From Rugalucina vietnamica (Eukaryota; Mollusca; Bivalvia; Lucinida; Lucinidae): 64,000 nucleotides of DNA. The stretch is taken from NCBI GenBank assembly GCA_964017185.1, contig OZ024874.1:31596721-31660720 (forward strand), read 5' to 3'. The translations under genes and the position numbers were made by a program. The notes beneath the pieces were generated by a model. It searched no databases. It saw only the letters and a program-made list of their open reading frames with translations, and was not told the origin of the DNA. Within the stretch, counting starts at the first letter, position 1. Every line of letters begins with the position of its first letter. Positions 1 through 56,030 of the stretch are shown in pieces.

Positions 1-2484
1 ACCGCTTGGCCAATCTAGTTGAAATTTTATGTGGAGCCTCCTTGGGTAGTGGCATTTCAAGTTTGATCGCGAAATCCAGGTCACATGACCAAGATGGCCG
101 CCACGCCCATATATGGTAAAAACCACTCAAAAATCTTCTTCTCCAGAACCGGTGGGCCGATTTCCACGAAACTTGGTATGTAGCATCGGGGATGTCAGCC
201 CATCATAGTTTGATAAAATGATGACCCCTGGATGACCTTGAATTATTTTACGGCAAGGTCAAATTTGGAAACATAGGCTTTTACATGGGAAAAAGTGAAA
301 ACTATGGATTTTTGGAAAACTATTGCAGCCTGAGGCCTGAAAAGTGGTAGATGCAAACAACTTATGGAGTAGATGAAGGTATGTGATTAATATAGGTCAA
401 GGTCATCTCTTGACCTTGGCCAGTCTGTCGTCCATACACACTTTTCAAAGATCTTCTTCTCTGAAACTGCTTGGCCAATCAAAGTGAAATTTTATGTGGA
501 GCATCCATGGGAAGGGGATACGAAAGTTTGATCGCGAAATCCAGGTCACATGACCAAGATGGCCGCCACGCCCATATATGGTAAAAACCACTCAAAAATC
601 TTCTTCTCCAGAACCCGTGGGCCGATTTCCACGAAACTTGGTATGTTGCATCAAGGACCTCAGCCCATCATAGTTTGATAAAATGATGACCCTTGGATGA
701 CCTTGACCTATTTTACGGCAAGGTCAAATTTGGAAACATAGGCTTTTACATAGGAAAAAGTGAAAACTATGGATTTTTTTAAAACTATTGCAGCCTGAGG
801 CCTGAAAAGTGGTAGATGCAAACAACTTATGGAGTAGATGAAGGTATGTGACTAATATAGGTCAAGGTCATCTCTTGACCTTGGCCAGTCTGTTGTCCAT
901 ACACACTTTACAAAGATCTTCTTCTCTGAAACTGCGCGGCCAATCAAAGTGAAATTTTATGTGGAGCATCCATGGGTAGGGGAGACGAAAGTTTGGTCGC
1001 GAAATCCAGGTCACATGACCAAGATGGCCGCCACGCCCATGTATGGTAAAAACCACTCAAAAATCTTCTTTTCCAGAACCGGTGGGCCGATTTCCACGAA
1101 ACTTGGTATGTAGCATCAACGACCTCAGCCCATCATAGTTTGATAAAATGATGACCCTTGGATGACCTTGACCTATTTTATGGCGAGGTCAAATTTGGAA
1201 ACATAGGCTTTTACATAGGAAAAAGTGAAAACTATGGAATTTTTTGAAAACTGTTGCAGCCTGAGGCCTGAAAAGTGGTAGATGCAAACAACTAATGGAG
1301 TAGATGAAGGTATGTGATTAATATAGGTTAAGGTCATCTCTTGACCTTGGCCAGTCTGTTGTCCATACACACTTTTCAAAGATCTTCTTCTCTGAAACTG
1401 CGCGGCCAATCAAAGTGAAATTTTATGTGGAGCATCCATGGGTAGGGGAGACGAAAGTTTGATCGCGAAATCCAGGTCACATGACCAAGATGGCCGCCAC
1501 GCCCATATATGGTTAAAACTACTCAAAAATCTTCTTCTCCAGAACTGGTGGGCCGATTTCCACGAAACTTTGTATGTAGCATCGGGGACCTCAGCCCATC
1601 ATAGTTTGATAAAATGATGACCCCTGGATGACCTTGAATTATTTTACGGCAAGGTCAAATTTGGAAACATAGGCTTTTACATAGGAAGAAGTGAAAACTA
1701 TGGATTTTTTAAAAACTATTGCAGCCTGAGGCCTGAAAAGTGGTAGATGCAAACAACTAATGGAGTAGATGAAGGTATGTGATTAATATAGGTCAAGGTC
1801 ATCTCTTGACCTTGGCCAGTCTGTTGTCCATACACACTTTTCAAAGATCTTCTTCTCTGAAACTGCTTGGCAAATCAAAGTGAAATTTTATGTGGAGCAT
1901 CCATGGGTAGGGGAGACGAAAGTTTGATCGCGAAATCCAGGTCACATGACCAAGATGGCCACCACGCCCATATATGGTAAAAACCTTTCAAAAATCTTCT
2001 TCTCCAGAACCGGCAGGCCAATTTTCATGAAACTTGGTATGTAGCATTTGGGACTCCAGCCTATCATAGTTTGTTGAAATGATGACCCTATGATGACCTT
2101 GACCTATTTTACGGCTAGGTCAATTTTGGAAACATAGGCTTTCACATGGGAAAAGGCGAAAACAGCTGTTGCAGCCTGAGACCTGACAGTTGCTAGATGC
2201 AGACAACTAATGGAGTCAATGAAGGTAAGTAATTAATGAAGGCCAAGGTCATGACTTGACCTTGGCCCAAGGTCATTTAAATATCAAAATTAAAATTGTG
2301 GTTTTCTCAGAAATCACTGGGTTTGGAAACTATTGCAGCCTGAGACCTGAAACTTTGCAGATGCAGACAACTTATGAAGTCAATAAAGGTGTGTGAGTAT
2401 TCAAGGTCAAGGTCATTTCATTATGACTTAATACTCCAAGATCAGGCTTCAGGTGAGCGTTCTCAGGACCAATGGTCCTCTGGT
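1..2484 (-). mobile_element. pearl-like (Helentron-associated type) tandem-repeat element, type 1, copy A, cut by window edge
   Basis: Minus orientation; 5' end at 2484 shows the 15-bp palindrome AGGACCAWTGGTCCT followed by GCTCACCTGA. Five internal units of about 465 bp follow: the GGTGGGCCGATTTCC block recurs near 151, 616, 1081 and 1547, with a diverged unit at 2011. Each unit carries facing TGACCTTGACC and GGTCAAGGTCA. Its 3' end is outside the window. The structure (terminal palindrome, short inverted repeats, tandem core, tetranucleotide tract, 3' hairpin) matches pearl/DINE-1-like non-autonomous elements of bivalves. No coding capacity. Confidence 0.65.
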
Positions 2485-2984: not shown

Positions 2985-5297
2985 ACTGCCATAAATGTTT
3001 ATTTAGCGGAAAAATAGCTGATTTCCACTTTTCCCATTATAAGTCTATGGAAACTTTAAGTTGCCATAGCAACCAGAGTTCTTATCCGCCTGGAATAAAA
3101 AAACACAAATTATATAGAGGCCACTGTCAGGAACATGTATACAAAGTATAGGCTTTATCCCCTTGACAGTTTCTGAGAAGAAGATTTTTGAATGTTTTTC
3201 GAAATTTTGCCCTATATGGGGCCCCTGCAACCAATCAAAATGAAGGATTAGAACAAAAGTCACATGAAACGTAGAGGACTACTCAATAAACATTTCTGCA
3301 AAAACAAAATTCAAATATCTCAAACAAGACAGAACCAGAGGACCATTGGTCCTGAGAACGCTCACCTGAAGCCTGATCCTGGAGTATTAAGTCATCATGA
3401 AATGACCTTGACCTTGAATACTCACACACCTTTATTGAATTCACAAGTTGTCTGCATCTGCAAAGTTTCAGGTCTCAGGCTGCAATGGTTTCCAAACCCA
3501 GTGATTTATGAGAAAACCATAATTTTAATTTTGATATTTAAATGACTTTGGGTCAAGGTCAAGAAATGAACTTGGCCTTCATTAATTACTTACCTTCATT
3601 GACTCCATTGGTTGTCTGCATCTAGCAACTTCCAGGTCTCAGACTGCAACAGTTTCCAAAATGTCCATTGTTTTCGCCTTTTCCCATGTAAAAGCCTATG
3701 TTTCCAAAATTGACCTTGCCGTAAAATAGGTCAAGGTCATCCTATGGTCATCATTTTATCAAACTATGATGGGCTGGCATCCCAAATGCTACATACTAAG
3801 TTTCATGAAAATCGGCCTGCCGGTTCTGGAGAAGAAGATTTTTGAGTGGTTTTTACCATATATGGGCGTGGCAGCCATCTTGGTCATGTGACCTGGATTT
3901 GGCGATCAAACTTTCGTCTCCCCTACCCATGGATGCTCCACATAAAATTTCACTTTGATTGGCCCAGCAGTTTCAGAGAAGAAGACCTTTGAAAAAATTG
4001 TATGGACCACACACTGACCAAGGTCAAGAGATGACCTTGACCTACATTGATCACATACCTTCATCTACTCCGTTAGTTGTTTGCATCTACCACTTTTCAG
4101 GCATCAGGCTGCAATAGTTTTCAAAAAATCCATAGTTTTCACTTTTTCCCATGTAAAAGCCTATGTTTCCAAAATTGACCTTGCCGTAAATTAGGTCAAG
4201 GTCATCCTAGGGTCATCATTTTATCAAACTATGATGGGCTAAAGTCCCAAATGCTACATACCAAGTTTCATGAAAATCGGCCTGCCGGTTCTGGAGAAGA
4301 AGATTTTTGAGTGGTATTTACCATATATGGGCGTGGCAGCCATCTTGGTCATGTGACCTGAATTTCGCGATCAAACTTTCATCTCCCCTACCTATGGATG
4401 CTCCACATAAAATTTCACTTTGATTGGCCGAGCAGTTTCAGAGAAGAAGATCTTTGAAAAGTGTGAATGGACGACAGACTGGCCAAGGTCAAGAGATGAC
4501 CTTGACCTAAATTAATCATATACCTTCATCTACTCCATTAGTTGTTTGCATCTACCACTTTTCAGGCCTCAGGCTGCAATAGTTTTCAAAAAATCCATAG
4601 TTTTCACTTTTTCCCATGTAAAAGCCTATGTTTCCAAATTTGACCTTGCCGTAAAATAGGTCAAGGTCATCTAAGGGTCATCATTTTATCAAACTATGAT
4701 GGGCTGAAGTCCCCGATGCTACATACCAAGTTTCGTGGAAATCGGCCCACCGGTTCTGGAGAAGAAGATTTTTGAAGGGTTTTTACCATATATGGGCGTG
4801 GCGGCCATCTTGGTCATGTGACCTGGATTTCGCGATCAAACTTAAAATGCCACTATCCAAGGAGGCTCCACATAAAATTTCAACTAGATCGGCCAAGCGG
4901 TTTCAGAGAAGATCTTTGAAATTGTGGACGACGGACGGACGGACGGACGGACGGATGGACAGACGGACGGACGCCGGATCATGGCCATCCTATAAGCTCA
5001 CCTTGTGAGCCTTCGGCTCAGGTGAGCTAAAAAACTGGCAATTTTCACTTTTTTCCATTATAAGTCTATGGGAAGCATAAGTTGCCATAGCAACCAAAGT
5101 CCTTATCCGATCAAAACAAAAAACACAATTATTCTTTCCCCCTACCTGTAGATGGTGTATGTGTAATATGAGAACAATCGACCCAGCGGTTTCAGAGAAG
5201 AAGATCTTTGAAATTGTGGACGACGGACAGACGGACGGACGCCGGAGCATGGGTATACTATAAGCTCACCTATGAGCCTTCGGCTCAGGTGAGCTAA
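2985..5297 (+). mobile_element. pearl-like element C (type 1 relative), split by copy B
   Basis: The two flanks of copy B, 2985-3333 and 5031-5297, line up end to end with the unbroken repeat at 6715-7327: same CCATTATAAGTCTATGG, GCATAGCAACC-type and TTCTTTCCCCCTACCTG blocks in the same order. It ends with the (ACGG)n tract and the GCTCACC...GGTGAGC hairpin at about 5262-5295. A 5' terminal palindrome was not seen at 2985, so the left end is uncertain. Confidence 0.55.
3334..5030 (+). mobile_element. pearl-like element, type 1, copy B, complete ends
   Basis: 5' end: ACCAGAGGACCATTGGTCCT, then GCTCACCTGA. Three core units of 465 bp follow (ATCGGCC block at 3811, 4276, 4741), then an ACGG/GACG tract (4928-4975), then the 3' hairpin GAGCC-TTC-GGCTC nested in GCTCACC/GGTGAGC, ending GCTAA. 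The 10-bp inverted repeat is GCTCACCTGA / TCAGGTGAGC. Target before insertion is visible at 7040-7060 (AAGACAG then CAAAAACTGG); no target duplication longer than one or two ambiguous A's is seen, as expected of Helitron-type insertion. Confidence 0.7.
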
Positions 5298-7918
5298 TAA
5301 AAATGAAGGCGCTAGAGTGGCCACAACACTAAATATTGATTTTTCAAACACTCAAGGGCAGATAACTCCGTAGTGAGAGGTCGGATCTGGTCGAAATTCG
5401 ATCTCATTCGAGATGTTATGAATGTCCTTGTTACTTCCAAGAATAAAGAAGATCCGAATAAAAATGAAGGCGCTAGAGTGGCCACAACACTAAATATTGA
5501 TTTTTCACACAGTCAAGGGCAGATAACTCTGCAGTCAAGGGTTGAATCTGGCTGAAATTCGAACTCATCCAAGATGTTATGGCTATCCTTATTACTTCCA
5601 AGTATGATGAAGATCCAATCAAAATTGAAGTCGCTAGAGTGGCCACAACACAAAACCAGAGGACCAATGGTCCTGTAAACGCTCACCTGAGATCTGCTTC
5701 ATATACCAATAAACATATTTGAATATTATGGTATTTAACCACAGTGCAGGGGCAGATGAAGCCCTTGGGCCATTTTCTTTTTTCAGAATAATCATTATTC
5801 TGTCCATTTGCCAATTTTTTGCTGATTTTCCCCTTCAATAACATTTTAAAAGCAGATAAGCCCCTGGGGTCCATTTTTTTCAGAATCATTAAATTTCAGT
5901 CCTACTGCCCATTTCCTGCAAGACTTTCACTTAAAATGACATTTTAAAAGTTTTCCCCATTCAAATGCATTGACGACCTATGTTGACCTTGCCATAAAAT
6001 AGGTCAAGATCACCACAGGGTCATGTTTTATATATACATTGTAGTACTTGAGTCATCCATACTTCATGCAATGTTTCGTTGAAATCGGTTCACCGGTTCT
6101 GGAGAAGAAGATATTTTAAGGGGTATTACCATATATGGGCATGGCGGCCATCTTGGTCATGTGACCTGGAGTATTTATATACACATTGGTTCCCACTTCC
6201 TATAGATGCTTCATATAAAATTTGGCTTTGATTGGCCAAGTGGTTTCAGAGAAAAAAATCTTTGAAAAGTGTGTATGGACGACAGACCGGCCAAGGTCAA
6301 GAGATGACCTTAACCTAAATTAATCATATACCTTCATCTAATCCATTAGTTGTTCGCATCTACCACTTTTCAGATCTCAGGCTGCAATAGTTTTCAAAAA
6401 ATAGCTAATTTCCACTTTTCCCATTATAAGTCTATGGAAACTTAAAGTTACCATAGCAACCAGAGTTCTTATCCGACTGGAATAAAAAACAAATTATGTA
6501 GAGGCTAGTGTCAGGAACATGTATACAAAGTACAGGATTCATCCACTTGACAGTTTCTGAGGAGAAGATTTTTGAATATTTTTTTTTTTTCAAAATTTTG
6601 CCCTTTATGGGGCCCCAGAAACCAATCAAAATAAAGGATTAGGACAAAACTCACAAGAAACGTCAAACACTACTCAATAAACATTTCTGCAAAAACAAAA
6701 TTCAAATGTCTGCAATTTTAGCGGAAAAATAGCTGATTTCCACTTTTCCCATTATAAGTCTATGGCAAATTTAAGTTGCCATAGCAATCAGAGTTCTTAT
6801 CCGCCTGGAATAAAAAACACAAATTATGTAGAGGCCACTGTCAGGAACATGTATACAAAGTATAGGCTTGATCCCCTTGACAGTTTCTGAGAAGAAGATT
6901 TTTGAATGTTTTTCGAAATTTTGCCCTATATGGGGCCCCTGCAACCAATCAAAATGAAGGATTAGGACAAAAGTCACAAGAAACGTAGAGGATTACTCAA
7001 TAAACATTTCTGCAAAAACAAAATTCAAATATCTCCAACAAGACAGCAAAAACTGGCAATTTTCACTTTTTTCCATTATAAGTCTATGGGAAGTATAAGT
7101 TGCCATAGCAACCAGAGTCCTTATCCGATCAAAACAAAAAACACAATTATTCTTTCCCCCTACCTGTAGATGGTGTATGTGTAATATGAGAACAATCGGC
7201 CCAGCGGTTTCAGAGAAGAAGATCTTTGAAATTGTGAACGAAGACGGACGACGGACGGACGGACGGACGCCGGAGCATGGGTATACTATAAGCTCACCTA
7301 TGAGCCTTCGGCTCAGGTGAGCTAATAATGACTTTTCAAACACTCAAGGGCAGCTAACTCCACAGTCAGAGGTCGGATCTGGCTGAAATTCGAACCCATA
7401 CGACATATTATGGTTGTCCTTGTTACCTGCAAGAATGAAGAAGATCCAATGAAAAATAAAGGCGCTAGAGTGGCCACAACATTTTTCCCATTATAAGTCT
7501 ATGGGGATTTTTCCAAACGCTCAAGGGCAGCTAACTCCGCAATCTGAGGTCGAACCTGGGCGAAATTCGAGCTCATCCGAGATGTTAAAGTTGTTCTTGT
7601 TATTCCCAAGAATGAAGAAGATCCAATCAAAAATGGAGCTGCTAGAGTGGCCACAACATTTTCCCCATTATGACTCAATGGGAGCTATCTGTTGCTATGG
7701 AAACCAGAGTTCCGATCCGATCTGCTTAAAAACCTATGGCAGGCAATCCCCCACCCCAATGCTGCTTCATGTAAAATCTGATTGCAATTGGCCAGTTAGT
7801 CTCAGAGATATTCAAGCTTGAAAGTGTGGACGCACGGACGCACGCACGGACGGACGGACAACGGCTCGACTACCATACTATAAGCTCACCTTGTGAGCCT
7901 TCGGCTCAGGTGAGCTAG
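5298..7918 (+). mobile_element. pearl-like element E with ~162-bp units, split by element D
   Basis: Units beginning GGCGCTAGAGTGGCCACAAC recur at about 5308, 5469, 5630, 7461 and 7630, giving a spacing of about 162 bp where uninterrupted. The element resumes after D at 7328 and ends with an ACGG/CGCACGG tract and the hairpin GAGCC-TTC-GGCTC at 7890-7917. The left end coincides with the end of element C, so C may itself be inserted in E. Confidence 0.5.
5655..7327 (+). mobile_element. pearl-like element D, inserted in E
   Basis: Starts ACCAGAGGACCAATGGTCCT then GCTCACCTGA, shares its 5' block with the copy at 17255. It contains one 455-type unit (to about 6370), two ~335-bp units starting at about 6385 and 6720, then the ACGG tract and terminal hairpin. 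It is a mosaic of units found separately in other copies, which suggests unit exchange within the family. Confidence 0.55.
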
Positions 7919-15557: not shown

Positions 15558-18500
15558 CTGGAAATATACATACATAGGCTCTGAGGAAGTTATTTTTCAT
15601 ATGACAATGCATATTAGATATTTATACATCAATGTGACCAATCAAATAAGATTCTTTGATGACATTCCAAACCTGATCTATTTGCTATTTTATGTAAATT
15701 CAGATTATAGTAAACAAATGCGTTGCTAGACAAGCCTCCTGCAAACAGATTTGCAATAATACTGAGGAAGGTTACCAGTAAAAAGTGTTCATTCCCAAAC
15801 AAACTTTTGGTTACTGCGCAACTCCAAGTCAGCAAAAGTTTGAACTAACCTTGCTAACTTCCGGTGAGGGCACCAGGGACACCTCGGGTACCGACACAGT
15901 TGACGTCACTAACAGATTAGATGGTTCCCCTCCTTGATCTAAGTGCTGTTTCCCTTTCTCCGTCAGGCCATTCTCCTCAGGCTCTTTCTCGTGCTCATGC
16001 TCACGATTTGAATGTAGTCGCGTCAAGGCTTTGTCCATGTAAGTTTCTTCTGAAATTGCTGTGAAAGAAAAAATGAATTTATGTAAGTACATGATGACTA
16101 AAACTGAACATGTTGAATAAAAGTGAACAAAAATTCAACCTGATTAAACAGTAGGGGAAGAAAAACAGCAAAGATCAGACTATGTGTTCATGTTTATGCA
16201 ATAACCTTGAATTACCATCAAAATATGTCTTTTCTGTTCATTCAGACTTACTGCTGGGAAATTAAAATACTCATCAAAGTGTGGACAAAACCATGTCAAA
16301 TGGTGACTCATGAGTCTTCCCACAACAAAATATTAGTTGGAACAAATGCACAGTTGTGATAGAATGCTGATCATGACAGATGAACATATAATGGCGGAAA
16401 AATACACACAAATGCATTTGACAAAATGGTCTGTAAGAAGTACGCCATATCCATAAAGTCTAGAGACTATCATCAATGAATGAAAACTTGATGTAAAAAG
16501 AAAGAATATTAATTTCATAAAAATATTGTCAGTATGCAAAGGTCAGCCCATCAGGAAAACATGTCCGTAATATGTATACCCTCTTAAACCCCACTTTTAT
16601 ATAGCAAAACTGGGGTATGCAGTGGTATACCTATTTTTCTTATTTTTTGCTCCAAAACATAGATTGTGGGTACTCGTTAGAACCGCCTCGGTGAGGCGGT
16701 TCAAACGTGTACCCACAGTCTATGTTATGAGCAAAAATAAGAAAAATATCAAGATTTTTTTGACAAAATTTTAAATTAATCTCTGTATATTGCATGGGCA
16801 AGTTTTTGTAATGCTACTTCTGCTAAAAGAAATGAGATCTCCTGCATAAGAAAAAAAAAAGAAAACTTTAAAACCCATTCCTATAATGTAGCATGTATTT
16901 TTCATGCAAGCAAAATATTGAAAAGCTTTTAAGCTGATTCACAGACAGACATACAAAGTATTTAATGAAATGACAGAGAGAATGTGTCAATATACTGTAA
17001 ATTCGGAAATTTTCACGTGACTTTATTTCGTGAATTTTCTATTTCCGAATTATTAGCAAGTTCTTGAATTCACGAGTGAGTGTCCATGTATTCTATAATG
17101 TTTGTAGTGACTCTTTATTAGCGAGAACTTTGAATACTCGAGGCAACCAATTCGCGAATATTAGCGAAAATTAAGTTCTCGCAAATATTTTCGGATCCAC
17201 AGTATGTTCACCTATGAGTCTTAACCTGAGCACAGGTCAGTAAAAAGCACCATAATAACCAGAGGACCAATGGTCCTGTAAACGCTCACCTGAGATCTGC
17301 TGCATATACCAATAAACATGTTTGAATATTATGGTATTTAACTCCAGTGCAGGGGCAGATGAAGCCCTTGGGCCATTTTCTTTTTTCAGAATCTTCAATA
17401 TTCTGTCCATTTGCCAATTTCCTGCTGGCTTTTCCCTTCAAATGACATTTTGACAGTTTTCCCAATTCAAATGCATAGGCAACCCATGTTGACCTTGCCA
17501 TAAACTTGGTCAAGGTCATCACAGGGTCATGATTTATATATACATTGGAGTACTTTAGCCATCGATGCTTCACGCCAAGTTTCCTTGAAATCAGTCTATT
17601 GGTTTCAGAGAACAAGATTTTTGATGGGTTTTTACCATATATGGGCATGGCGGCCATCTTTGTCATGTGACCTAGATTATTTATATACACATTGATTCCT
17701 CAATTCTATAGATGCTTCACATAAAATTTGGCTTTGATTGGCCGAGCGATTTCAGAGGAGAAGAGGTTTGAATATATATTATGGAAATATACATGTATAT
17801 TGCCCCGGGGTGGGGGCACATGAGCCCCTGGGGTCCAATTTTTTTCAGAATCATTAATTTTCAGTCCTACTTCCCATTTCCTGCAAGACTTTCACTTTAA
17901 ATTACATTTTAAAAGTTTTCCCCATTCAAATGCATTGGCGACCTATGTTGACCTTGCCGTAAAATAGGTCAAGGTCATGAAAAGGTCATGAATTATATAT
18001 ACATTGTAGTGCTTGAGCCATCAATGCTTCATGCCAAGTTTTGTTGAAATCGGTCCACCGGTTCTGGAGAAGAAGATTTTTGAAGGGTTTTTACCATATA
18101 TGGGCATGGCGGCCATCTTGGTCATGTGACCTGGATTATTTATATACACATTGGTTCCCCCTTCCCATAGATGCTTCATGTAAAATTTGGCTTTGATTGG
18201 CCAAGCGGTTTCAGAGAAGAAGATGTTTGAATATTATGATAATATACATGTATATTGCCCCGGGGTGGGGGCGGATGAGCCCCTGGTGCCCAATTTTTTT
18301 CAGAATCATTAATATTCAGTCCTACTGCTCATTTTCTGCAAGATTTTTCCTTTAAATTACATTTTAAAAGTTTCCCCATTCAAATGCATTGGCGACCTAT
18401 GTTGACCTTGCCGTAAAATAGGTCAAGGTCATGAAAAGGTCATGAATTATATATACATTGTAGTGCTTGAGCCATCGATGCTTCATGCCAAGTTTTGTTG

Positions 18501-21500
18501 AAATCGGTCAACCGGTTCTGGAGAAGAAGATTTTTGAAGGGTTTTTACCATATATGGGCATGGCGGCCATCTTGGTCATGTGACCTGGATTATTTATATA
18601 CACATTGGTTTCCCCTTCCCATAGATGCTTCATGTAAAATTTGGCTTTGATTGGCCAAGCGGTTTCAGAGAAGAAGATGTTTGAATATTATGATAATATA
18701 CATGTATATTGCCCCGGGGTGGTGGCGGATGAGCCCCTGGTGCCCAATTTTTTTCAGAATCATTAATATTCAGTCCTACTGCTCATTTTCTGCAAGACTT
18801 TTCCTTTAAATGACAATTTAACAATTTTTCCCATTCAAATGCAAAGGCGACCTATGTTGACCTCGCCGTAAAATAGGTCAAGGTCACCGCAAGGTCATGA
18901 TTTATATACACATTGTAGTACTTGAGTCATCGATGCTTCATGCCAAGTTTGGTTGAAATCGGTCCAGTGGTTCCGGAGAAGAAGATTTTTGAAGGGTTTT
19001 TACCATATATGGGCATGGCGGCCATCTTGGTCATGTGACCTGGATTATTTATATACACATTGGTTCCCCCTTCCCATAGATGCTTCATGTAAAATTTGGC
19101 TTTGATTGGCCAAGCGGTTTCAGAGAAGAAGATCTTTGAAAATGGTGGACGACGGACGGACGACGGACGACGGACGACGGACGGACGGACGGACGCCGGA
19201 TCATGGCCATCCTATAAGCTCACCTTGTGAGCCTGACGGCTCAGGTGAGCTAAAAATATCTACATGCATGTGCATAATCAAAGCTCCTTCACCAAGGTTT
19301 TAATGGCAGGTACTTACTACTACTATCAAGCCAAGGCATTTTGTATCATATACATGCTGATTCAGTACTAGTATTATCTGAGAACCTGTAGAGTACCTTC
19401 TACTTTTCAAATAGAATCTACTACAAACGTGTTTCCTTGTGATTACTTAACTCTTATCCTGCTGTTTGCGTAAATTGCCGTTTTGGGAAGGTAGTCAACC
19501 TTTACAGCTTGCCAAGCTGTACATAGTACACCTCAACCTCTTTACAACATTACAATATTATTGGGGTCCAAACCAATTTCCGTGTTAGCTATCCATTCTG
19601 TGTTATAACGAGAGTAAAATGTATAGATATATAGCAAAATTAGAACATTTGGGGTCCAGCAATGATCAGTGTTATATCCAAAATCGTGCTGTGATGAAGG
19701 TTGTTATAAAGGGGTCCAGGTGTACATTGTATACATATTAAAATACTTGCAAATGAACAGTATGAATAAAGCAAAGGAAACATGTCCATAGACATATATA
19801 ATTTTTTAAGGTTTAATTTGTTTGTGAGCTGAGGTTTTTACTCTATATTTGCTCTAAAAAGTTATCTAGATGGTAAATACATTAAATTTAGGCATAATAG
19901 AAAAGCTTTTTGCATGCAGCTGCCTTTCCATTTATTTTCTTGGTATTGTTTTTTGGGATAATCAAATACTTTTAGTTGATATGATTACCATATCTTTAGT
20001 ATGTGGATAAATTTTTCTTTCACTGTTTTTTGCGCCACGTCGTAAGAAAATGTTATTACTGCCTATGCGAAATCAAAGGCGCAGATCAGTTGTGCAGTGA
20101 CTGCACAACTAATCAGCGATTTTGTTTTCACTATCCTTTTTCTTCTTAAATCCAAAATTTAAAGCTTCTGGCCTGCTTCTGTGACTGTACAGGCTGGTTT
20201 ATGTCAGACCTGGTCGGAAGCCCCGAAGACCAGTTTTCTCGAGTCGCGGCTCATTTGTTGCCTGGCTTTGTTACATGTCTAGCAAGCTCTTACCATGAAT
20301 GAAAGGATCAAATCCTGACTTAGCCCCCTCTGACAACATAAACATAACAAACACCTGAACTGCCCTCAAACCTGGACATGCAAACATAAACATGCAAATG
20401 AGAACTGCAGGACCCTTCATAAAAAGTGGCAGTGATTAACTGATAAACAAGATAAGATTGGCATTTTCATCAAAAAGAGGGGACACATTATATTCATATA
20501 ATGATTGCTGAAAGCATTAAAGATCCAATATTTTGGGTCACATAAATGGGTCGAAAGAAGAAATTTTGTTCAAAGATCTCCTTACATTCATCTGTTTTGA
20601 TGAAATTAATGGTCCCATGTTTTTCTGACAGAAGAAGACTGTCACTTTTCATGAAAGCACCTGTACACTGAAAAAATGTCAAGCCTAAGATATCACATCA
20701 GACTATGTATGTTTAATGAGTACTAATCACATTCCGTCATCATTTAGAAATTTCAGCATATTAGTTACTGTTAAACAACTTAACATGCAAAAATGTAGTG
20801 CTTTACTGACTCAGTGTTGTTTTATAACTGCCAATGTTTATATTTTTATTACAAGTCCGAGAAGGAAAATAAAAGTACATTCGAAGTAAAAATACATTTT
20901 CCTTATTATTATACTTCTGTTGTTGTTGTTTAACTTTTGCAAAACTTCAATCTGACATAGACAATGTCTTCTAAGTTGGCTTGAAATTTTTCATAGCAAT
21001 AAAGAAAAACAATGAAAAACTCACTACTGCATAAAGGAAAGTTTGACAGCTAAAAGGACCTAAAATGATATGCTTTATTTAAAGGAAGTATAAAATGTAT
21101 GACACTTTTGTTCTTCTAAATGTTGTGGTCAACCATAGGAAGACATTGTATTTTTAGACCCTGTAGGCCATAATCGTTTTTGTGCAGTTAAAAGAAATAC
21201 ACAGTCTGATGATATGTTTCTGTATCTTTGATTAGCTAAGCAACAATATTAATCATAAATGAACTAAGGTCTGGGGAAAGAAAACTAGAATAGTATGACT
21301 AACTTTGAATGCAGATGGTAATAAGGTGTGTTCAAGATGAAATGAGCCGCATCGTGAGAAAACCGGATTTTTGCCTAGGCGAAAACAAAGGCGCAGATCA
21401 GCTTCGCGGTAACCGCGAAGCTGATCAGCGCCTTTGTTTTCGCTACTCGGATAGTACAATTCCTCTTCTACTTAAATCCAAAATTGCAAGCTTCTAGCTC

Positions 21501-34546: not shown

Positions 34547-34838
34547 ATCAGGAAAACATGTCAGTGAAACAAATACAAATGTACCTACCCCCTTATACCC
34601 CACTTTTTTATAGTAAAACTGGGGTATGCATGGGTATACCTATTTTTCTTATTTTTGATCCAAAACAGAAACTGTGGGTACTCTTTAGAACTGCCTCGTC
34701 AAGGCTTTTCTAACGTGCACCCACAATCTATGTTTTGAGCAAAAGTAAGAAAAATACCAAAATTTTACTACTGAAATTTTTCATTTTTTACAACTTTAAA
34801 AATCTCTGTATATTGCATGGGTATGTTTTAGTAATGTT
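34547..34838. mobile_element. hairpin MITE 'ATCAGGAAAACATG', copy 3
   Basis: ATCAGGAAAACATGTCAGTG start, stem AACTGTGGGTACTCTTTAGA / ACGTGCACCCACAATCTATG, CATGGGTATGTTTTAGTAATG end. Confidence 0.65.
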
Positions 34839-35518: not shown

Positions 35519-35740
35519 GAGCCGCATCGTGAGAAAACGGAAATTTGCCTATGCGAAAACAAAGGCGCAGATCAGCTTCGCAGTAACTGCGAAGCTGATC
35601 AGCGCTTTTGATTTCACTACACGAATAGTACAATTTCTCTTCTATTTAAATCCGAAATTTCAAGCTTCTAGCCTCCTTCTGTGACTTTGTGTCAGACCCG
35701 GTCGGAAACCCCGAAGACCGGTTTTTTCACGTCGCGGCTC
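35519..35740 (+). mobile_element. CP-MITE copy 13
   Basis: Near-complete: GAGCCGCATCGTGAGAAAAC left end, CTTCGCAGTAACTGCGAAG centre, CACGTCGCGGCTC right end. A short deletion removes part of the CTGTACAGGCCGG block. Confidence 0.8.
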
Positions 35741-37425: not shown

Positions 37426-37660
37426 GAGCCGCGACGCGAGAAAACCGGGCTTTGGAATTTCCGACCAGGTCTGACACAAACTGACCTGTACAGTCACAGA
37501 AGCGGCCTAGAAGCTTGAAATTTCGGATATAAGAAGAAGAGGAAATGTACTATCCCTATAGCGAAAACAAAGGCGCTGATCAGCTTCGCGGTTACCGCGA
37601 AGCTGATCTGCGCCTTTGTTTTCGCATAGGCAAAAATGCGGTTTTCTCACGATGCGGCTC
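37426..37660 (-). mobile_element. CP-MITE copy 15, near-consensus
   Basis: AAAT duplication (37422-37425, 37661-37664); palindrome centre CGCGGTTACCGCG intact. Confidence 0.85.
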
Positions 37661-41174: not shown

Positions 41175-41502
41175 AAATGTTTATCAAAGTGGCAGTAATG
41201 GTCTTATTTACATAAAATTAATTTAGTTGATACAAATTGGTACTAAATAGTTATGAATTCTTATTTTTTATCTACTGAACTGATAAATCATGAAAGGCAT
41301 GATCATCAATCTTGCGTTTTTTCTCATTTGACATTTATGAGGATAGGTAACTTTTCTGGGCATTCAGGTTATTCTAGTATAAGATTTTAATCCAGGTACA
41401 TGTATAATATATTATCTTAGTTCTAATACAATGAAAATCTATGACAAAAAATATGACTGACAATCAACAGCCAATCGATGACCCAAAAGACATTAGGAAT
41501 AG

Positions 41503-43770
41503 TCTATGACCACATGGACATAATGGACAATCTATGACAACAGAGACAAGAATGATGGACAATTATGTCCACAGAGACATGATGGACAATCTATGACCAC
41601 AGAGACATGATGGACAATCTATGACCACAGAGACATGATGGACAATCTATGACTAAACAGACATGATGGACAATCTATGACCAGAGTCATGATGGACAAT
41701 CTGTGACCAAACAGACATGATGGACAATCTATGACCACAGTCATGATGGACAATCTATGACCACAAAGACATGACGGACAATCTATGACCACAGAGGCAT
41801 AATGGACAATCTATGACCACAGATACACGATGGACAATCTATGACCACAGAGACATGATAGACAATCTATGACCACAGAGACATGATGAACAATCTATGA
41901 CCACAGAGACATCATGGACAATCTATGACCACAGATACATGATGGACAATCTATGATCACAGAGACATGATGGACAGTCTATAACCACAGAGACACAATG
42001 GACAATCTATAACCACAGAGACATGATGGACTATCTATGACCACAGAGACACAATGGACAATCTATGATCACAGAGACATGATGGACAATCTATGACTAA
42101 ACAGACATGATGGACAATCTATGACCAGAGTCATGATGGACAATCTGTGACCAAACAGACATGATGGACAATCTATGACCACAGTCATGATGGACAATCT
42201 ATGACCACAGAGACATGATGGACAATCTACAACCACAGAGACATGATGGACAATCTATGACCACAGAGGCATAATGGACAATCTATGACCACAGAGACAT
42301 GATGGACAGTCTATGACCACAGAGACATGATGGACAGTCTATGACCACAGAGACATAAAAGACAATCCATAACCACAGAGACATGATGGACAATCTATGA
42401 CCACAGAGGCATAATGGACAATCTATGACCACAGAGACACAATGGACAATCTACAACCACAGAGACACAATGGACAATCTATGACCACAGAGACATGATG
42501 GACAGTCTATGACCACAGAGACATAAAAGACAATCTATAACCACAGAGACATGATGGACAATCTATGACCACAGAGGCATAATGGACAATCTATGACCAC
42601 AGAAACATGATGGACAATCTACAACCACAGAGACATGATGGACAATCTATGACCACAGAGACATGATGGACAATCTACAACCACAGAGACACAATGGACA
42701 ATCTATGACCACAGAGACATGATGGACAGTCTATGACCACAAAGACATAAAAGACAATCTATAACCACAGAGACATGATGGACAATCTATGACCACAGAG
42801 GCATAATGGACAATCTATGACCACAAAGACATGATGGACAATCTATAACTACAGAGACATAATGGACAATCTATGACCACAGAGGCATAATGGACAATCT
42901 ATGACCACAGAGACATGATGGACAATCTACAACCACAGAGACATGATGGACAATCTATGACCACAGAGACATGATGGACAGTCTATGACCACAGAGACAT
43001 AAAAGACAATCTATAACCACAGAGACATGATGGACAATCTATGACCACAGAGGCATAATGGACAATCTATGACCACAAAGACATGATGGACAATCTATAA
43101 CTACAGAGACATAATGGACAATCTATGACCACAGAGGCATAATGGACAATCTAAGACCACAGAGACATGATGGACAATCTACAACCACAGAGACATGATG
43201 GACAATCTACAACCACAGAGACATGATGGACAATCTATGACCACAGAGACATGATGGACAATCTACAACCACAGAGACACAATGGACAATCTATGACCAC
43301 AGACATAAAAGACAATCCATGATGGACAATCTATGACCACAAAGACATGATGGACAATCTATGACCACAGAGGCATAATGGACAATCTATGACCACAGAG
43401 ACATGATGGACAATCTACAACCACAGAGACATGATGGACAATCTATGACCACAGACACATGATTGACAATCTACGACCACAGAGGCATGATGGACAATCT
43501 ATGACCACAGAGACATGATGGACAATCTATGACCAAACAGACATGATGGACAATCTATGACCAAACAGACATGATGGACAATCTATGACCACAAAGTCAT
43601 GATGTGCAATCTATATAGATGATCAGAGAGACATAATGGACAATCTATGACCACAGAGACATGACAGACAATCTATGACCACAGAGACATCATTGGCAAT
43701 CTATGACCACAGAATCATGATGGACAATCTATGATCAGAGAGACATGGACAATCTATGACCACAGACATG
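41503..43770. repeat. 28-bp minisatellite, about 80 copies with higher-order repeats
   Basis: Unit GACATGATGGACAATCTATG ACCACAGA. Variant units (GACATAAAAGACAATC, GGCATAATGG, CTACAACC, CTATAACTAC) recur in fixed order: the ACATAAAAGA variant sits at 42353, 42521, 42745 and 42997, spacings 168, 224 and 252, all multiples of 28. Edges decay into related but irregular units. Confidence 0.95.
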
Positions 43771-44599
43771 ATGTATTACCAGAGAGAGAATAAGGCATAA
43801 CCAGAAACACAATAAACAGTCTATGACTGACCAGAGACATAACAATTATTGCATTGTGAGTCTGTAGAAACCAACTCAGATAGACAAGACTAGACTATAT
43901 ATAGAAGGCTGATGCTGCAACAACAAGGTGAGTAAAATCACCTACCAGTCAGACAGAATGATCTCCCCTGTTTAAGAACTAATTTATCTTAATGCTGAGA
44001 AAATTCCTCTTGGTGTTAAATAATACATCTTTGTCCATGTGGAACTGGGCTAAAAATAGGCAATGATTTCCAATACTCCTGCAGACTGACTCTTGTAGAA
44101 ACTAAAAATAGTGGAAGTGTTGATTAATGTGATATTTCTTTTTTTCCAGAAGAGTCGAGCTGTCGATAAGCATGGTAGTTAATTCCACTATCCGTCAAAT
44201 TCACTTAGTTAAGTAGAAGCTTATGTGGCGTAAATGTTAAGCTTCTTGCTTTGTTAACCATAAGAGTACAAGCTCGAGCCCGAACTCTACAAGTCTTTTG
44301 GATATTGAATCAGAGGTCCAGTCTCCATATGACCTTAGCTATTGAGAACACCTTAGTATATCAGTCAAATAGTTTGCACCACTAAACAACTATCTGTATG
44401 GTCAGACATTGGTTTTAAGTTAAGTGTTATCTATTATTTGTAGAGGCCTTGGTCCAACATCACATTGCAGAGAAGCTTTAGGCTGCTATATCAGGTGAAT
44501 GAAGGCCAAATAACTAGCTGAATTACGTGTGCTGATTCAGGTTAGCATACGCATCAAGCTACATGCTGTTCATTAGTGTAAAAAGACAGCTACAATTTT
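43771..44599. other. unassigned sequence
   Basis: A faint tRNA-like block (TTAAGCTTCTTGCTTTGTTA ... AGCTCGAGCCCGA) at 44235-44290 followed by ATGACCTTAGCTATTGAG may be an old SINE. Otherwise nothing. Confidence 0.35.
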
Positions 44600-46533: not shown

Positions 46534-46973
46534 CATACAAAGCCAGTATATTTTCCACAAAAATTCCTCGTTACCTAGCTCTCAACCAGTATGTTCATCT
46601 GTGCTCTCTATACGAATATGTACATCCATTTTCAGAAGCGAATTCTCACGACCATCAATTGTGAAGTAAAAACAAACTTTGCGATGATTCTGCAGAAAAA
46701 AAAAAACTGCAATATCTGAAACAATGTGTGTGCAGCTTGTGGCATGAAGTGTTATGTCTACACACTAATCCATCAATACGAGTATGGCAGAAAACATTTC
46801 ACAATCATTACAGGCTCCATATGTCTCTATTGAAACATGCAAACATACAGAATATAGGTCCGGGTAACTCGGAAAGTAGTGCCGCTACTTGAGGATATGA
46901 CCGCAATGAGACTGACTTCAAGCTCTTTCACATTCTTTCTTCAAGATTTGGATATGAAAAGATTTCTGCATCC

Positions 46974-47266
46974 AAGCTTCTCCTAGTGACTCCCAAGCTT
47001 CTCCTAGTGACTCCCAAGCTTCTCCTAGTGACTCCCAAGCTTCTCCTAGTGACTCCCAAGCTTCTCCTAGTGACTCCCAAGCTTCTCCTAGTGACTCCCA
47101 AGCTTCTCCTAGTGACTCCCAAGCTTCTCCTAGTGACTCCCAAGCTTCTCCTAGTGACTCCCAAGCTTCTCCTAGTGACTCCCAAGCTTCTCCTAGTGAC
47201 TCCCAAGCTTCTCCTAGTGACTCCCAAGCTTCTCCTAGTGACTCCCAAGCTTCTCCTAGTGACTCA
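46974..47266. repeat. 21-bp minisatellite, 14 nearly identical copies
   Basis: Unit AAGCTTCTCCTAGTGACTCC C repeated with essentially no divergence. 21 is a multiple of 3, so four of the six frames stay open; the resulting heptapeptide-repeat frames (for example ESLGEAW) are by-products. Confidence 0.95.
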
Positions 47267-47827: not shown

Positions 47828-48062
47828 GAGCCGCCGCATGGGAAAACCAACAATCTGCAAAGGCGAAAACAAAGGCGCAGATCAGCTTCGCAGTGACTGC
47901 GAAGCTGATCAGCGCCTTTGTTTTCGCTACACGGATAGTACATTTCCTCTACTTTCTAAATACAAACTTTCCAGCCTCTAGCCATCTTTTGTGACTGTAC
48001 AGCCTGGTTTGTGTCGGACTTGGTCGGAAACCCAAACTGTTGGTTTTCTCATGCGAAGGCTC
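47828..48062 (+). mobile_element. CP-MITE copy 21
   Basis: GAGCCGCCGCATGGGAAAAC to CATGCGAAGGCTC, full palindrome, CCAACA inner-end variant. Confidence 0.8.
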
Positions 48063-50230: not shown

Positions 50231-50465
50231 GAGCCGCAATATGAGAAAACCGGATTTCTGCTTGTGCAAAAACAAAGGCGTAGAGCAGCTGTGCAGTAAC
50301 TGCACAGCTGATCAGCGCCTTTGTTTTTGCTACTCGGATAGTATAATTCCTCTTCTACTTATAGCCAAAATTTCAAGCCTCTAGCCAGCTTCTGTGACTG
50401 TACAGACCGATTTGTGTCAGATCTGGTTGAAAATCTCGAAGACCGGTTTTCTCTCATCGTGGCTC
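50231..50465 (+). mobile_element. CP-MITE copy 24
   Basis: ATAT duplication; GTGCAGTAACTGCAC palindrome-centre variant. Confidence 0.83.
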
Positions 50466-50908: not shown

Positions 50909-51142
50909 GAGCCGCATCATGGGAAAACCAACATTTTGCATATGCCAAAACAAAGGCGCAGATCAGCTTCGCAGTAACTGCGAAGCTGATCAGCGCCTTT
51001 GCTTTCGCTACACAGATAGTACAATGCATCCACTTTCTAAATCCAAACTTTCCCGCTTCTAGCCTGCTTCTGTGCTTGTACAGCCTGATTTGTGTCGGAC
51101 CTTTCCGAAAGCCACTTTGTTGGTTTTCTCATGACGTGGCTC
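50909..51142 (+). mobile_element. CP-MITE copy 25
   Basis: AATT duplication; CTTCGCAGTAACTGCGAAG centre; CCAACA/TGTTGG inner ends. Confidence 0.85.
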
Positions 51143-53469: not shown

Positions 53470-53541
53470 GGACCATGCCATGAGAAAATCTGTGTTTGGT
53501 TTTCTGACCAGGTCTTAGAAGCTTAATATTTTGATTTTAAT
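53470..53541 (-). mobile_element. CP-MITE fragment (copy 27)
   Basis: GACCATGCCATGAGAAAATC and GACCAGGTC then stops at the start of the pearl-like element at 53542, which may have landed in it. The other half was not recognised on the far side. Confidence 0.4.
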
Positions 53542-55001
53542 AAGAGCTGTCGCAGGACAGCGTAGCTCGCCTGACTTGTGCTTTGTCACTACATCTGTTA
53601 AAATCTATGACCCATGACCTTGACCTCAAGGTCACTCAGGTGGGTCATGATGGTACAACATAAAACTTCAGACCAATGCAAAGTATCAACTTGATCAATC
53701 TACATGTTCAAGAGATATAGACTTATAAAAACATTAACCAAAACTTAAACACAAAACTTCCAAGTCTGTGACCCTGACCTCAAGGTCATCCAGGTGAGTT
53801 GTGATGTACAGCATAAAACCCGAGACCAATATCTATCAACATGCAAGTATCAACTTTATCCATCAACATGATGTTCAAGAGATTTAGACTTTAACCAAAA
53901 CATTTAACACAAAATTTCTAAGTCTGTGACCTTGACCTCAAGGTCACCCAGGGTAGGTCATGATGGTACTGCATAAAACTTCAGACCAATATCTACCAAC
54001 ATGCAAAGTATCAACTCGATCAATCAACATGGTCAAGAGATATAGACTTACAAAAACTTAAACACAAAATTTCTAAGTCTGTGACCTTGACCTCAAGGTC
54101 ACCAAGAGTGGGCCGTGATGGTACTGCATAAAACTTCAGACAAATATCTAGCAACATGCAAAGTATCAACTCAATCCATTAATATGGTCAAGAGATATAG
54201 ACTTACAAAAACTTTAACCAAAAACTTAAGCACAAAATTTCTAAGTCTGTGACCTTGACCGCAAGGCACCCAGGGTGGGTCATGATGGTACTGCGTAAAA
54301 CTTCAGACCAATATCTAGCAACATGCAAAGTATCAACTCAATCCATCAATATGGTCAAGAAATATAGACTAACAAAAACTTTAACCAAAAACTTAAACAC
54401 AAAATTTCTAAGTCCGTGACCTCGACCTCAAGGTCACCCAGGGTGGGTCATGATGGTACTGCGTAAAACTTCAGACCAATATCTAGCTGCTAAGCAACAT
54501 GCAAAGTATCAACTCAATCCATCAATATGGTTAAGAGATATAGACTTACAAAAACATTAACCAAAAACTTAAAACACAAAATTTCTAAGTCTGTGACCTT
54601 GACCTCAAGGTCATCCAGGGTGGGTCATGATGGTACTGCGTAAAACTTCAGACCAATATCTAGCAACATGCAAAGTATCAACTTGATCCATCAACATGGT
54701 CAAGAGATATAGACTTTTAAAAAACTTTAACCAAAAACTTAAACACAAAATTTCTAAGTCTGTGACCTTGACCTCAAGGTCACCCAGGGTGGGTCATGAT
54801 GGTACTGCGTAAAACTTCAGACCAATATCTAGCAACATGCAAAGTATCAACTTGATCCATCAACATGGTCAAGAGATATAGACTTTTAAAAAACTTTAAC
54901 CGAAAGTGTGACGCGGACGCACACGTAAACGTAAACGTAAACGTAAACGCGCACGACCGAGGTGACTACAATAGCTCTATGCACTTCGTGCAGGCGAGCT
55001 A
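53542..55001 (+). mobile_element. pearl-like element, type 2, eight ~155-172-bp units
   Basis: 5' hairpin GCTGTCGCAGGACAGC followed by TAGCTCGCCTGA; units start at GTGACCTTGACCTCAAGGTC near 53613, 53771, 53924, 54083, 54250, 54416, 54590 and 54765. A CGTAAA tract (54925-54950) and the 3' hairpin TGCAC-TTC-GTGCA inside TAGCTC/GAGCTA close it. The 11-bp inverted ends TAGCTCGCCTG / CAGGCGAGCTA are perfect. Core sequence differs from type 1, but each unit again carries facing TGACCTTGA/TCAAGGTCA. No coding. Confidence 0.7.
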
Positions 55002-56030
55002 AAAAGAAGGTAAGATGGACTGTAAAGGGTGTTAAGAAAGGTCGTTCCGCTATTAAAGGCATAATTTCTATGACATGTTGTCCAAAAAGATGTCTGAATT
55101 AATTGATCTGCTGATATGAGTGACAGTTTCATACCTTTTAAATTGTCATACTCAAATGAAATTTTCATCTGACCATGTACTATGTTCCTGTTTCACCAAC
55201 TCCCATTTCGCCTATGATTTGTCCTATTTAGTCCACTCCCATTTCGCCTCCTCATTCAATATGGATGAATAACAATTTTAAAACCAAAAAAAAAAAAAAA
55301 AAAAACCAACTAAAACAACCTCCTACAATCATTCAACCCATTCCGGATCAAGTTCCTGAAAATTGCTGCGCATGCGCATATGAATGATTTGAGTATTTTG
55401 AACTTAGTATTATCTTGAAGCCAATTTTGTTCCTCATCAACTGTAATGGTTTTCATTTTTGATCAAGCACGCAACTGTGACCGCTGGAGCGTGAAAGTCT
55501 ATGCATAATTGAAGTCGAAGCGAATCAATTGGAGGTAATCCGAATCATGGTCTATATATCACCACCGATGGGTTTATCCTTCAAATTCTTTGCATGTAGC
55601 CATACAGTGAACCTTATCAAATATTCCGAGGACCAAAACAAATGCCTTTTTCGGCGGCATTTTCCCATAGCCATGTTTGCTTAACCCCACCCCCACCAAA
55701 CACACAATGTTCCATGGGTAATTTGAATAACGTTTGAATATCATTCTATGTTTGTTAAAGGCGCAGATTATTTCATTGTTTACACTTAATTTTATAACAT
55801 GAACATCCAGAATGTAAAAATATCCCTTTAGTTCCAAACATCAGACAATCCAAGTCCTTTGAGAGCACAAAATGACAGTATGCGGTTAAACGTGATTCGG
55901 AGTAACTACAATAACACCGTTTCAAAGGTTCTAATTAAATATGTTGTAATATTCGATTTTAGGACTGAAACTTCGCCAAAATAACAGAAAATGATTGGAC
56001 AAAATATTAGCAAACAATATCGAAAGATAA
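55002..56030. other. unassigned sequence left of the candidate promoter
   Basis: Contains a direct repeat of ACTCCCATTTCGCCT (about 55199 and 55239), an A run, and a short minus-strand frame MPPKKAFVLVLGIFDKVHCM at 55665 that stops 12 codons after K16. A first coding exon ending at GATAAG|GTTCAC is conceivable but the donor is weak. Confidence 0.3.

What the first reader, a model, noticed from the sequence alone, without database searches (positions are those of the whole stretch)
53542..55001. Two pearl-like families with unrelated cores share one terminal architecture
Type 1 (465-bp units) and type 2 (~165-bp units) both run: small 5' hairpin (AGGACCAATGGTCCT or GCTGTCGCAGGACAGC), then GCTCRCCTGA, tandem core, CG-containing short-repeat tract (ACGG or CGTAAA), then a 3' hairpin with a TTC loop (GAGCC-TTC-GGCTC or TGCAC-TTC-GTGCA) overlapping the inverted repeat and ending in GAGCTA. 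Stem sequences differ while loop, order and spacing are kept, as if structure is what the mobilising enzyme reads.
Basis: partly seen in the sequence, partly recalled or inferred. Interest (0 to 1): 0.75.

Follow-up and report, generated by a model that had tools for sequence, protein, structure and literature searches.

The report
Helentron-mobilised tandem-repeat elements in a bivalve-like genome
The two repeat families are non-coding passengers of a rolling-circle transposon; one of them was matched to its protein-coding partner here, and a small DNA hairpin at one end seems to be kept by its shape and its loop rather than by its stem letters.

Summary
On the other strand both families have the layout of known non-autonomous Helentrons (HINEs; bivalve "pearl" elements are filed there): T-run, 5' subTIR with a nested hairpin, microsatellite, tandem core, 3' subTIR, palindrome. 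The cores are unrelated. Type 2's 5' end has 5,362 matches. A 13,085-bp Rep/endonuclease Helentron carries type-1 ends; three more carry the 5' end of the window's 454-bp relative. No type-2 partner was found. The printed oyster study could not link its HINEs to any autonomous element. Compensatory change holds for the true 5' hairpin: 2,431 of 2,461 type-2/type-3 ends are in one of two paired states, and 97 of 100 listed ends of a second group are Watson-Crick at the loop-closing pair. Six kinds of stem carry a GNA or GNNA cap; fungal Helitron2 ends in print also show GAA. Decayed copies show one-sided changes, and the 3' palindromes share no loop and fold weakly. The kind is known and structure conservation was already proposed; the cap rule is the new part.

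The parts
53540..55002 (-). type-2 HINE, whole element (true 5' end at 55002, true 3' end at 53540)
   Evidence: copies and flanks; no ORF of >=60 aa lies inside it (one 63-aa frame overlaps its edge)
54972..55001 (-). type-2 5' subTIR and IR folding as a two-tier hairpin TAGCTC-GCC-TGCAC[GAA]GTGCA-TA-GAGCTA
   Evidence: (z -2.83); covariation with type 3
54923..54949 (-). (CGTTTA)n microsatellite of the left flank
53734..54900 (-). type-2 tandem core, about 169-bp units, 7.1 copies
53563..53574 (-). type-2 3' subTIR (TCAGGCGAGCTA on the element strand)
53546..53561 (-). type-2 3' palindrome GCTGTC[CTGC]GACAGC
   Evidence: folds weakly, and the MFE pairs GAGCT with AGCTC instead
3334..5029 (-). 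type-1 HINE, whole element (465-bp units at 3554-4912, microsatellite 4926-4973)
4995..5028 (-). type-1 5' two-tier hairpin AGCTCACCT GAGCC[GAA]GGCTC ACA AGGTGAGCT
   Evidence: z -5.36; nearly the same end on the autonomous Helentron
3339..3353 (-). type-1 3' palindrome AGGACC[AAT]GGTCCT, preceded by the 3' subTIR at 3358-3369
   Evidence: z -1.97 in the Helentron version
17257..19252 (-). type-1b HINE (454-bp units), 5' hairpin 19217-19252 with a GTCA loop
   Evidence: 5' ends upstream of three Rep genes; 5,739 exact 5' ends genome-wide
1..2484 (+). part of a further type-1 element cut by the window start; 3' subTIR 2449-2460 and palindrome 2465-2479
5263..5295 (-). further type-1-like 5' hairpin end (GAA loop)
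7291..7323 (-). further type-1-like 5' hairpin end (GAA loop)
7883..7916 (-). further type-1-like 5' hairpin end (GAA loop)

Best explanation
Types 1, 1b and 2 are HINEs: non-autonomous Helentrons that carry tandem repeats, the bivalve 'pearl' kind. Shown: type 1 shares both ends, and type 1b its 5' end, with autonomous Rep-encoding Helentrons of this genome, which also carry related tandem units; type 2 has the same layout and inserts in T-rich DNA without target duplication. Inferred: the Helentron protein nicks next to the T-run at the 5' end, peels one strand with its helicase, and stops at the 3' subTIR plus palindrome; the strand, perhaps as a circle, is joined into a T-rich site. Inferred: the 5' subTIR/IR folds on the displaced or extruded strand into a two-tier hairpin, and its pairing and its sheared-G.A type cap (GNA or GNNA loop), not its stem letters, are what is recognised. 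That would let different Helentron lineages drift to unrelated stems while keeping the cap.
For: (a) Autonomous partner: three copies of one Helentron share one boundary, TTTTT|AGCTCACCTGAGCCGAAGGCTCACAGGTGAGCT at the 5' end and ...CTCAGGTGAGCGTTTATAGGACCAATGGTCCTCTGGT at the 3' end; 13,085 bp in the C5 copy. Left flank 87-88% identical to the window's type-1 flank; its tandem units match the 454-bp unit at 77-82% over up to 457 bases and the 465-bp unit at 76-82% over up to 297 bases. C5 copy: Rep match of 101.5 bits in an open frame of 2,621 aa; herpes-tegument-type N domain and DUF6570, and a C-terminal Exo_endo_phos match. RGSPH, the Helentron signature, in 9 of the 11 loci, of 30 examined, where the motif could be read. 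(b) AGCTC-type 5' ends lie on the Rep strand in 9 of 20 regions 5.9-7.2 kb upstream of Rep genes; the 3 antisense hits are the IR arms of the same hairpins, so 0 of 20 have an independent antisense end. Three are type 1b, 95-96% identical to the window's type-1b element over 617-1,172 bases. (c) 9 of 9 type-2 left flanks read end in TT (8 independent; L005 and L007 share flanks); all 9 keep TTAT after the palindrome, so it is element sequence and no duplication. One insertion has paralogous empty sites, 8 printed, three of them one position in copies of one Helentron. (d) Covariation. (e) Cap: 15 of 20 distinct two-tier hairpins next to a T-run are GNA/GNNA, 6 of 83 others. (f) In print: Helraiser 3' hairpin with exchanged stem kept about 90% activity, a changed loop (one base pair at its base changed too) behaved like deletion (PMC4778049, passages); GNA and GNNA DNA loops are exceptionally stable (PMC4686876, passages); N4 RNA polymerase reads such a hairpin with free choice of non-conserved stem letters (PMC4496689, passages).
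Against: No autonomous element with type-2 ends was found, so mobilisation of type 2 by this kind of protein rests on layout and on its type-3 relative. The type-3 end at C3 lies at the right place (-6,256) upstream of a Rep gene, but type-2-like repeats follow it and its 3' end was not found (the stretch fetched, L103, holds an open frame that I take, from recall, for a host gene), so it may be a HINE beside the gene. The endonuclease match of the type-1 Helentron is below Pfam's cut-off (22.8 v 24.5 bits); its helicase segment was not fetched. Covariation counts sequences, not events: it shows at least two two-sided changes. Single copies with deviant stems mostly do not pair: 6 of 9 fetched are one-sided or decayed, and of all 20 fetched only 2 pass the strict two-tier test. 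Type 1b shows no stem variation in the 42 rows with letters. The cap could simply be inherited in the AGCTC group; only three subTIR groups are independent. 3' hairpins do not support a shared structural code. 5 of 20 T-run hairpins are not GNA/GNNA.
Confidence: 0.85

Rival explanations
1. MITE-like elements with terminal inverted repeats moved by a DDE transposase; the hairpins are only by-products of inverted repeats.
For: TAGCTCRCCTG is present inverted at both ends; pearl was first described as a MITE according to PMC7492417 (passage).
Against: The inverted repeat is terminal at one end only; no target duplication in the 9 type-2 copies read nor at the empty site; the element with the same ends encodes Rep. 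DDE transposases were not searched for.
Confidence: 0.03
2. HINEs as above, but the 5' hairpin is read by sequence through the subTIR; the cap and the paired stems are inherited with each master lineage and the covariation reflects two founders each.
For: Within type 1b the stem does not vary in 42 of 42 rows with letters; covariation comes from two master lineages in each case; the outer subTIR TAGCTCNCC is shared by types 1-3; deviant single copies are not compensated.
Against: Both lineages changed both sides of a pair and stayed paired, in two unrelated subTIR groups; three subTIR groups with unrelated stems have the same cap; fungal Helitron2 ends in print have GAA with other stems (PMC5148889).
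Confidence: 0.35
3. Types 1 and 2 are mobilised by one and the same Helentron protein, which accepts both stems.
For: Type-1 and type-1b ends occur upstream of Rep genes with near-equal Pfam scores (not compared directly); no type-2 autonomous element turned up; same layout.
Against: Only 20 of at least 150 Rep loci had this 5' region read; a type-3 end, close to type 2, lies upstream of one Rep gene. Absence was tested with one exact 3' pattern only.
Confidence: 0.3
4. Satellite-like arrays whose shared ends come from gene conversion rather than transposition.
For: Cores are tandem repeats.
Against: Dispersed near-identical full-length copies with sharp ends and different flanks, and empty sites.
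Confidence: 0.01

Closest known systems
Cg_HINE elements of Crassostrea gigas (PMC7492417; Results section read, passages)
   Same: 5' subTIR of 11-12 bp, complementary IR, microsatellite (GTCC among them), tandem monomers of 138-181 bp, 3' subTIR then palindrome; T-rich sites, no TSD; related flanks with unrelated cores occur
   Different: there no autonomous partner could be related to any Cg_HINE; here type 1 and type 1b have one. 454-465-bp units lie outside the monomer lengths of its 13 clusters. Loop sequence is not discussed in what I read
Pearl elements of bivalves (Gaffney 2003; known to me only through the passages of PMC7492417)
   Same: bivalve elements with short arrays of about 160-bp central repeats, re-filed as non-autonomous Helentrons
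   Different: original sequences were not compared
Helentrons and HINEs (Thomas 2014, PMC4067079; abstract, Results parts 1 and 2 of 3, passages)
   Same: Rep with RGSP motif, AP-type endonuclease, subTIRs, 3' stem loop, TT preference, deletion-derivative HINEs
   Different: the GNA/GNNA cap is not mentioned in what I read
Helitron2 (Bao and Jurka 2013, PMC3627910, passages; FoHeli1/2 of Fusarium oxysporum, PMC5148889, passages)
   Same: 5' hairpin formed with the 5' ATIR; compensatory mutations reported for one pair of elements; FoHeli1 and FoHeli2 print the same GAA loop with other stems
   Different: no endonuclease; the loop is printed but, in the passages found, not commented on
DINE-1 of Drosophila (Yang and Barbash 2008, PMC2374699, passages)
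   Same: subTIR, IR, GTCY microsatellite, central repeats, 3' stem-loop with stems that differ between species
   Different: compensation was proposed there for the 3' hairpin; here it is the 5' hairpin that shows it

Membership tests
HINE (non-autonomous Helentron) | 11-13 bp subTIRs, close to the 5' end and internal at the 3' end | tested here: met
HINE (non-autonomous Helentron) | IR complementary to the 5' subTIR | tested here: met
   two-tier hairpins
HINE (non-autonomous Helentron) | short microsatellite in the left flank | tested here: met
   GTCC type in type 1, CGTTTA in type 2
HINE (non-autonomous Helentron) | 3' stem-loop after the 3' subTIR | tested here: met
   present; weak folds, z -1.97 and -1.51
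HINE (non-autonomous Helentron) | T-rich insertion site, no target-site duplication | tested here: met
   9 of 9 type-2 flanks read, one empty site with 8 paralogues printed
HINE (non-autonomous Helentron) | no coding capacity | tested here: met
   type 2 only: no ORF of >=60 aa inside it
HINE (non-autonomous Helentron) | shared ends with an autonomous Helentron, types 1 and 1b | tested here: met
   type 1 both ends; type 1b 5' end only
HINE (non-autonomous Helentron) | shared ends with an autonomous Helentron, type 2 | tested here: inconclusive
   none found; one pattern search and 20 upstream regions
Helentron (autonomous partner) | Rep (Helitron_like_N) with the RGSP motif | tested here: met
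   Rep match in the C5 copy itself; RGSPH in 9 of 11 readable loci, which do not include that copy
Helentron (autonomous partner) | C-terminal AP-type endonuclease | tested here: inconclusive
   type-1 partner: E 9e-05 but 22.8 bits, below the cut-off of 24.5; over the cut-off in two other families here
Helentron (autonomous partner) | PIF1-type helicase | not tested
   that part of the type-1 partner was not fetched; Pif1_2B matches in the two other families
MITE / DDE transposon | true TIRs and fixed-length TSD | tested here: not met
Pearl | sequence or module match to the published pearl elements | not tested
   no mollusc sequence collection is on hand

The most novel reading that the evidence does not exclude
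The whole Helitron2/Helentron branch, from fungi to animals, starts its 5' end with a hairpin capped by a GNA or GNNA loop, and this cap plus pairing, not stem sequence, is the recognition signal of the Rep protein. Such caps are exceptionally stable in single-stranded DNA and, in phage N4, go with a small hairpin that extrudes from supercoiled duplex; so the same feature could both open the duplex for nicking and mark the end. A Rep could then accept ends of foreign lineages if the cap fits, which would explain hijacking by HINEs with unrelated ends.
Probability: 0.3. Interest if true: 0.75.

Novelty: new member of a known kind. Interest (0 to 1): 0.5.

Why it matters
The oyster study left open what moves tandem-repeat HINEs in bivalves; here 465-bp and 454-bp HINEs are tied to Helentrons that share their ends and carry related tandem units, so such arrays can travel as part of a rolling-circle element and seed satellite-like DNA. 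The cap rule, if it holds, turns a vague 'hairpin' into a testable recognition code, gives a search pattern for Helentron ends in other genomes, and complements the experimental result on the Helraiser 3' hairpin, where the loop mattered and the stem sequence did not.

Tried and rejected
Family F3 as type-2 partner: a type-2 copy lies about 7 kb downstream of an F3 Rep gene on the same strand, but it is a complete HINE inserted next to the F3 3' end. Rows that stop at query position 1364 looked like different 3' ends; the one copy read is complete and longer by about one repeat unit. Autonomous type-2 element by a 3'-end pattern that excludes the HINE context: 2 hits, both in type-2-like repeats. 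Ends of families F1 and F2 by shared words between their two sides: their 5' ends were not reached. An F4 copy (the type-1-ended Helentron) lies inside a type-2 left flank, but the far flank did not match type 2, so it gave no empty site. 20 ends with deviant stems were fetched to look for compensation: most are decayed. A first hairpin scan labelled GAA loops as CGAAG and was replaced. The Fisher p (1.5e-9) is not used: rows are related, each hairpin is counted on both strands, and one true GAA end (L058, L089) falls outside the T-run rule. D. melanogaster DINE-1 as an outside check: I recall a GTA loop in its 5' hairpin; two searches for the recalled letters found nothing, so it stays a lead. 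Not-in-print claim for the cap: searches and the passages of the papers named; figures and supplements were not seen, and most papers appeared only in search listings.

Full report
Setting. The window lies in a 1.09-Gb genome of 47 contigs, unnamed; I take it for a bivalve only from its repeats. It can be searched but gives no file.

What is there. The strings in the finding exist. On the minus strand each element reads: T-run; TAGCTCRCCTG... with a complementary arm a few bases on; a microsatellite (GTCC type in type 1, CGTTTA in type 2); the tandem array; a subTIR complementary to the first; a palindrome; a short tail. The type-1 and type-2 cores are unrelated (no blastn hit at E<=1e-3), while the 465-bp and 454-bp cores are about 70% identical. 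Type 2 has 14 of 67 listed rows covering at least 1458 of 1460 letters at 95-100% identity (the tool scored 40 of 3,539 candidates), and 5,362 5' ends with up to 2 mismatches.

Orientation. Comparison of three copies of one Helentron (C5, C7, C4) gives a sharp 5' boundary at TTTTT|AGCTCACCTGAGCCGAAGGCTCACAGGTGAGCT and a 3' boundary just after GGACCAATGGTCCTCTGGT, with unrelated flanks. The Rep frame runs in this direction. The C5 copy spans 54459542-54472626, 13,085 bp, with a Rep match of 101.5 bits in a 2,621-aa open frame. Its N-terminal part matches Herpes_teg_N (E 3.4e-06) and DUF6570 (2e-21), its C-terminal part Exo_endo_phos (9e-05, below the cut-off); the helicase part was not fetched. 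Helentrons with a tegument-type deubiquitinase domain and an AP endonuclease are known, molluscs included (PMC9741609, passages). Its left flank is 87-88% identical to the window's type-1 flank; its tandem units match the 454-bp unit at 77-82% over up to 457 bases and the 465-bp unit at 76-82% over up to 297 bases. So type 1 has a partner with the same two ends and the same sort of core.

Other partners. I read 20 regions 5.9-7.2 kb upstream of Rep genes (20 of at least 150 Rep matches). Nine have an AGCTC-type 5' end on the Rep strand; the three antisense hits are the other arms of the same hairpins; eleven regions have none. Of the nine, four are type 1. Three are type 1b with a GTCA loop and match the window's type-1b element at 95-96% over 617-1,172 bases. 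One is a 'type 3' end (GAAA loop), whose left flank resembles type 2 and whose repeat unit is 87% identical to the type-2 unit; since a HINE beside the gene could look the same and its 3' end was not found, I do not count it as a partner. One (L097) has the flank of a non-coding copy. No element with type-2 ends and a Rep gene was found.

Insertion. Nine of nine type-2 copies read (eight independent) are preceded by TT, and all nine keep TTAT after the palindrome. One copy sits in a type-1-like repeat for which empty versions exist: TTTATATAAATC against TTTATT[element]TTATATAAATC; 7 of the 8 printed paralogues read TTTATATAAATC and one TTTGTATAAATC; three of the seven are one position in copies of one Helentron. 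No duplication is needed.

The hairpin test. (1) In the AGCTC group I searched the whole genome with the middle pair of the inner stem left free (Y on one side, R on the other) and the loop 3 or 4 long: 2,461 ends. Of these 1,430 are C.G with loop GAA (type 2) and 1,001 are T.A with loop GAAN (type 3); 30 remain for all other combinations. (2) In an unrelated group, TATGCCCCCAACTT..., which forms the 5' end of the F3 Helentron, the loop-closing pair was left free: 1,830 ends; of the 100 listed, 62 are T.A, 35 C.G, 2 T-G and 1 C-A, by my count of the listing. Both are two-sided changes between master lineages; they count as two events, not thousands. (3) Over larger distances whole stems are exchanged: GAGCC/GGCTC, TGCAC/GTGCA, CCTGTAC/GTACAGG, CCAACTTT/AAAGTTGG, CAACTTC/GAAGTTG, AAAAC/GTTTT. 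The six 5' ends folded do better than shuffles, z -2.8 to -6.6; 1 of 200 shuffles matches type 2 and 0 of 200 the other five. Against: ends with deviant stems picked (20 fetched of 114 listed) are mostly decayed or changed on one arm only; 6 of the 9 are of that sort, and only 2 of the 20 pass the strict two-tier test. That is expected of copies that drift after insertion, but it means that compensation is seen between families, not within them.

The cap. In a scan of the window and all loci held, blind to loop sequence, 20 distinct two-tier hairpins stand next to a T-run; 15 have a GNA or GNNA loop (GAA, GTCA, GTTA, GAAA, GGAA), against 6 of 83 others. The five exceptions include one mutated type-2 copy. 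The loci were chosen around such elements and rows are related; independent subTIR groups are three (TAGCTC, TATGCCCCC, TATACCCCCC). In one search the fourth loop base was free to be A, G or T: 42 of 42 rows with letters (of 5,739 matches) read GTCA or GTTA. [quoted passage not shown] FoHeli3-5 have a 'degenerate hairpin' there. GNA and GNNA loops are the class of exceptionally stable DNA mini-hairpins (PMC4686876, passages), and phage N4's polymerase recognises such a loop with a sheared G:A pair while non-conserved stem bases are free as long as they pair (PMC4496689, passages).

The other end. The 3' palindromes differ in stem, loop and spacing, and fold only weakly (z -1.97 and -1.51; 8 and 17 of 200 shuffles do as well). 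For the Helraiser Helitron the 3' hairpin was tested: exchanged stem about 90% of activity; changed loop, with one base pair at its base changed too, like deletion (PMC4778049, passages).

What is known. HINE anatomy in oysters (PMC7492417), Helentron ends and partners in arthropods (PMC4067079), stems differing between species at the DINE-1 3' end (PMC2374699), and compensatory mutations at Helitron2 ends (PMC3627910, which also proposes that pairing of the two ATIRs breaks the 5' hairpin to set the end point) are in print. The oyster study states that it could not relate any autonomous element to its HINEs.

Noticed in passing
G000 C7, locus L046 about 1570-1700: A type-1-ended Helentron sits inside the left flank of a type-2 element, in its TTTTT run: nesting of one family in the other, though the far flank did not match type 2.
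   Followed up: partly
L040, L044, L050, L056, L059, L061 (families F1-F3): Three other Helentron families end in ...TTCTAGTT, like the CTAG end of canonical Helitrons, although F1 and F2 carry the endonuclease: a mixed set of features.
   Followed up: partly
genome-wide: 48 of 108 listed Rep matches have the same score (801 bits, 91% identity to the query) and 44 of these 48 have an open frame of exactly 2,562 aa, by my count of the listing: a very recent burst of one Helentron.
   Followed up: no
window 46972-47265: 14 perfect copies of the 21-bp unit CCAAGCTTCTCCTAGTGACTC.
   Followed up: no
window 41489-43773: 2.3-kb array of a 28-bp unit with strong AT skew (+0.39 at 42001-44000).
   Followed up: no
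window 21380-21442, 35570-35600, 37562-37624, 47864-47926, 50266-50330, 50951-51001: Six copies of a long foldback family (CGAAAACAAAGGCGC...GCGCCTTTGTTTTCG and shorter forms) and a second one at 16665 and 46361.
   Followed up: no
window 34595-34627: A hairpin ATACCCC...GGGGTAT next to a T pair may be a decayed end of the TATACCCCCC Helentron group.
   Followed up: no
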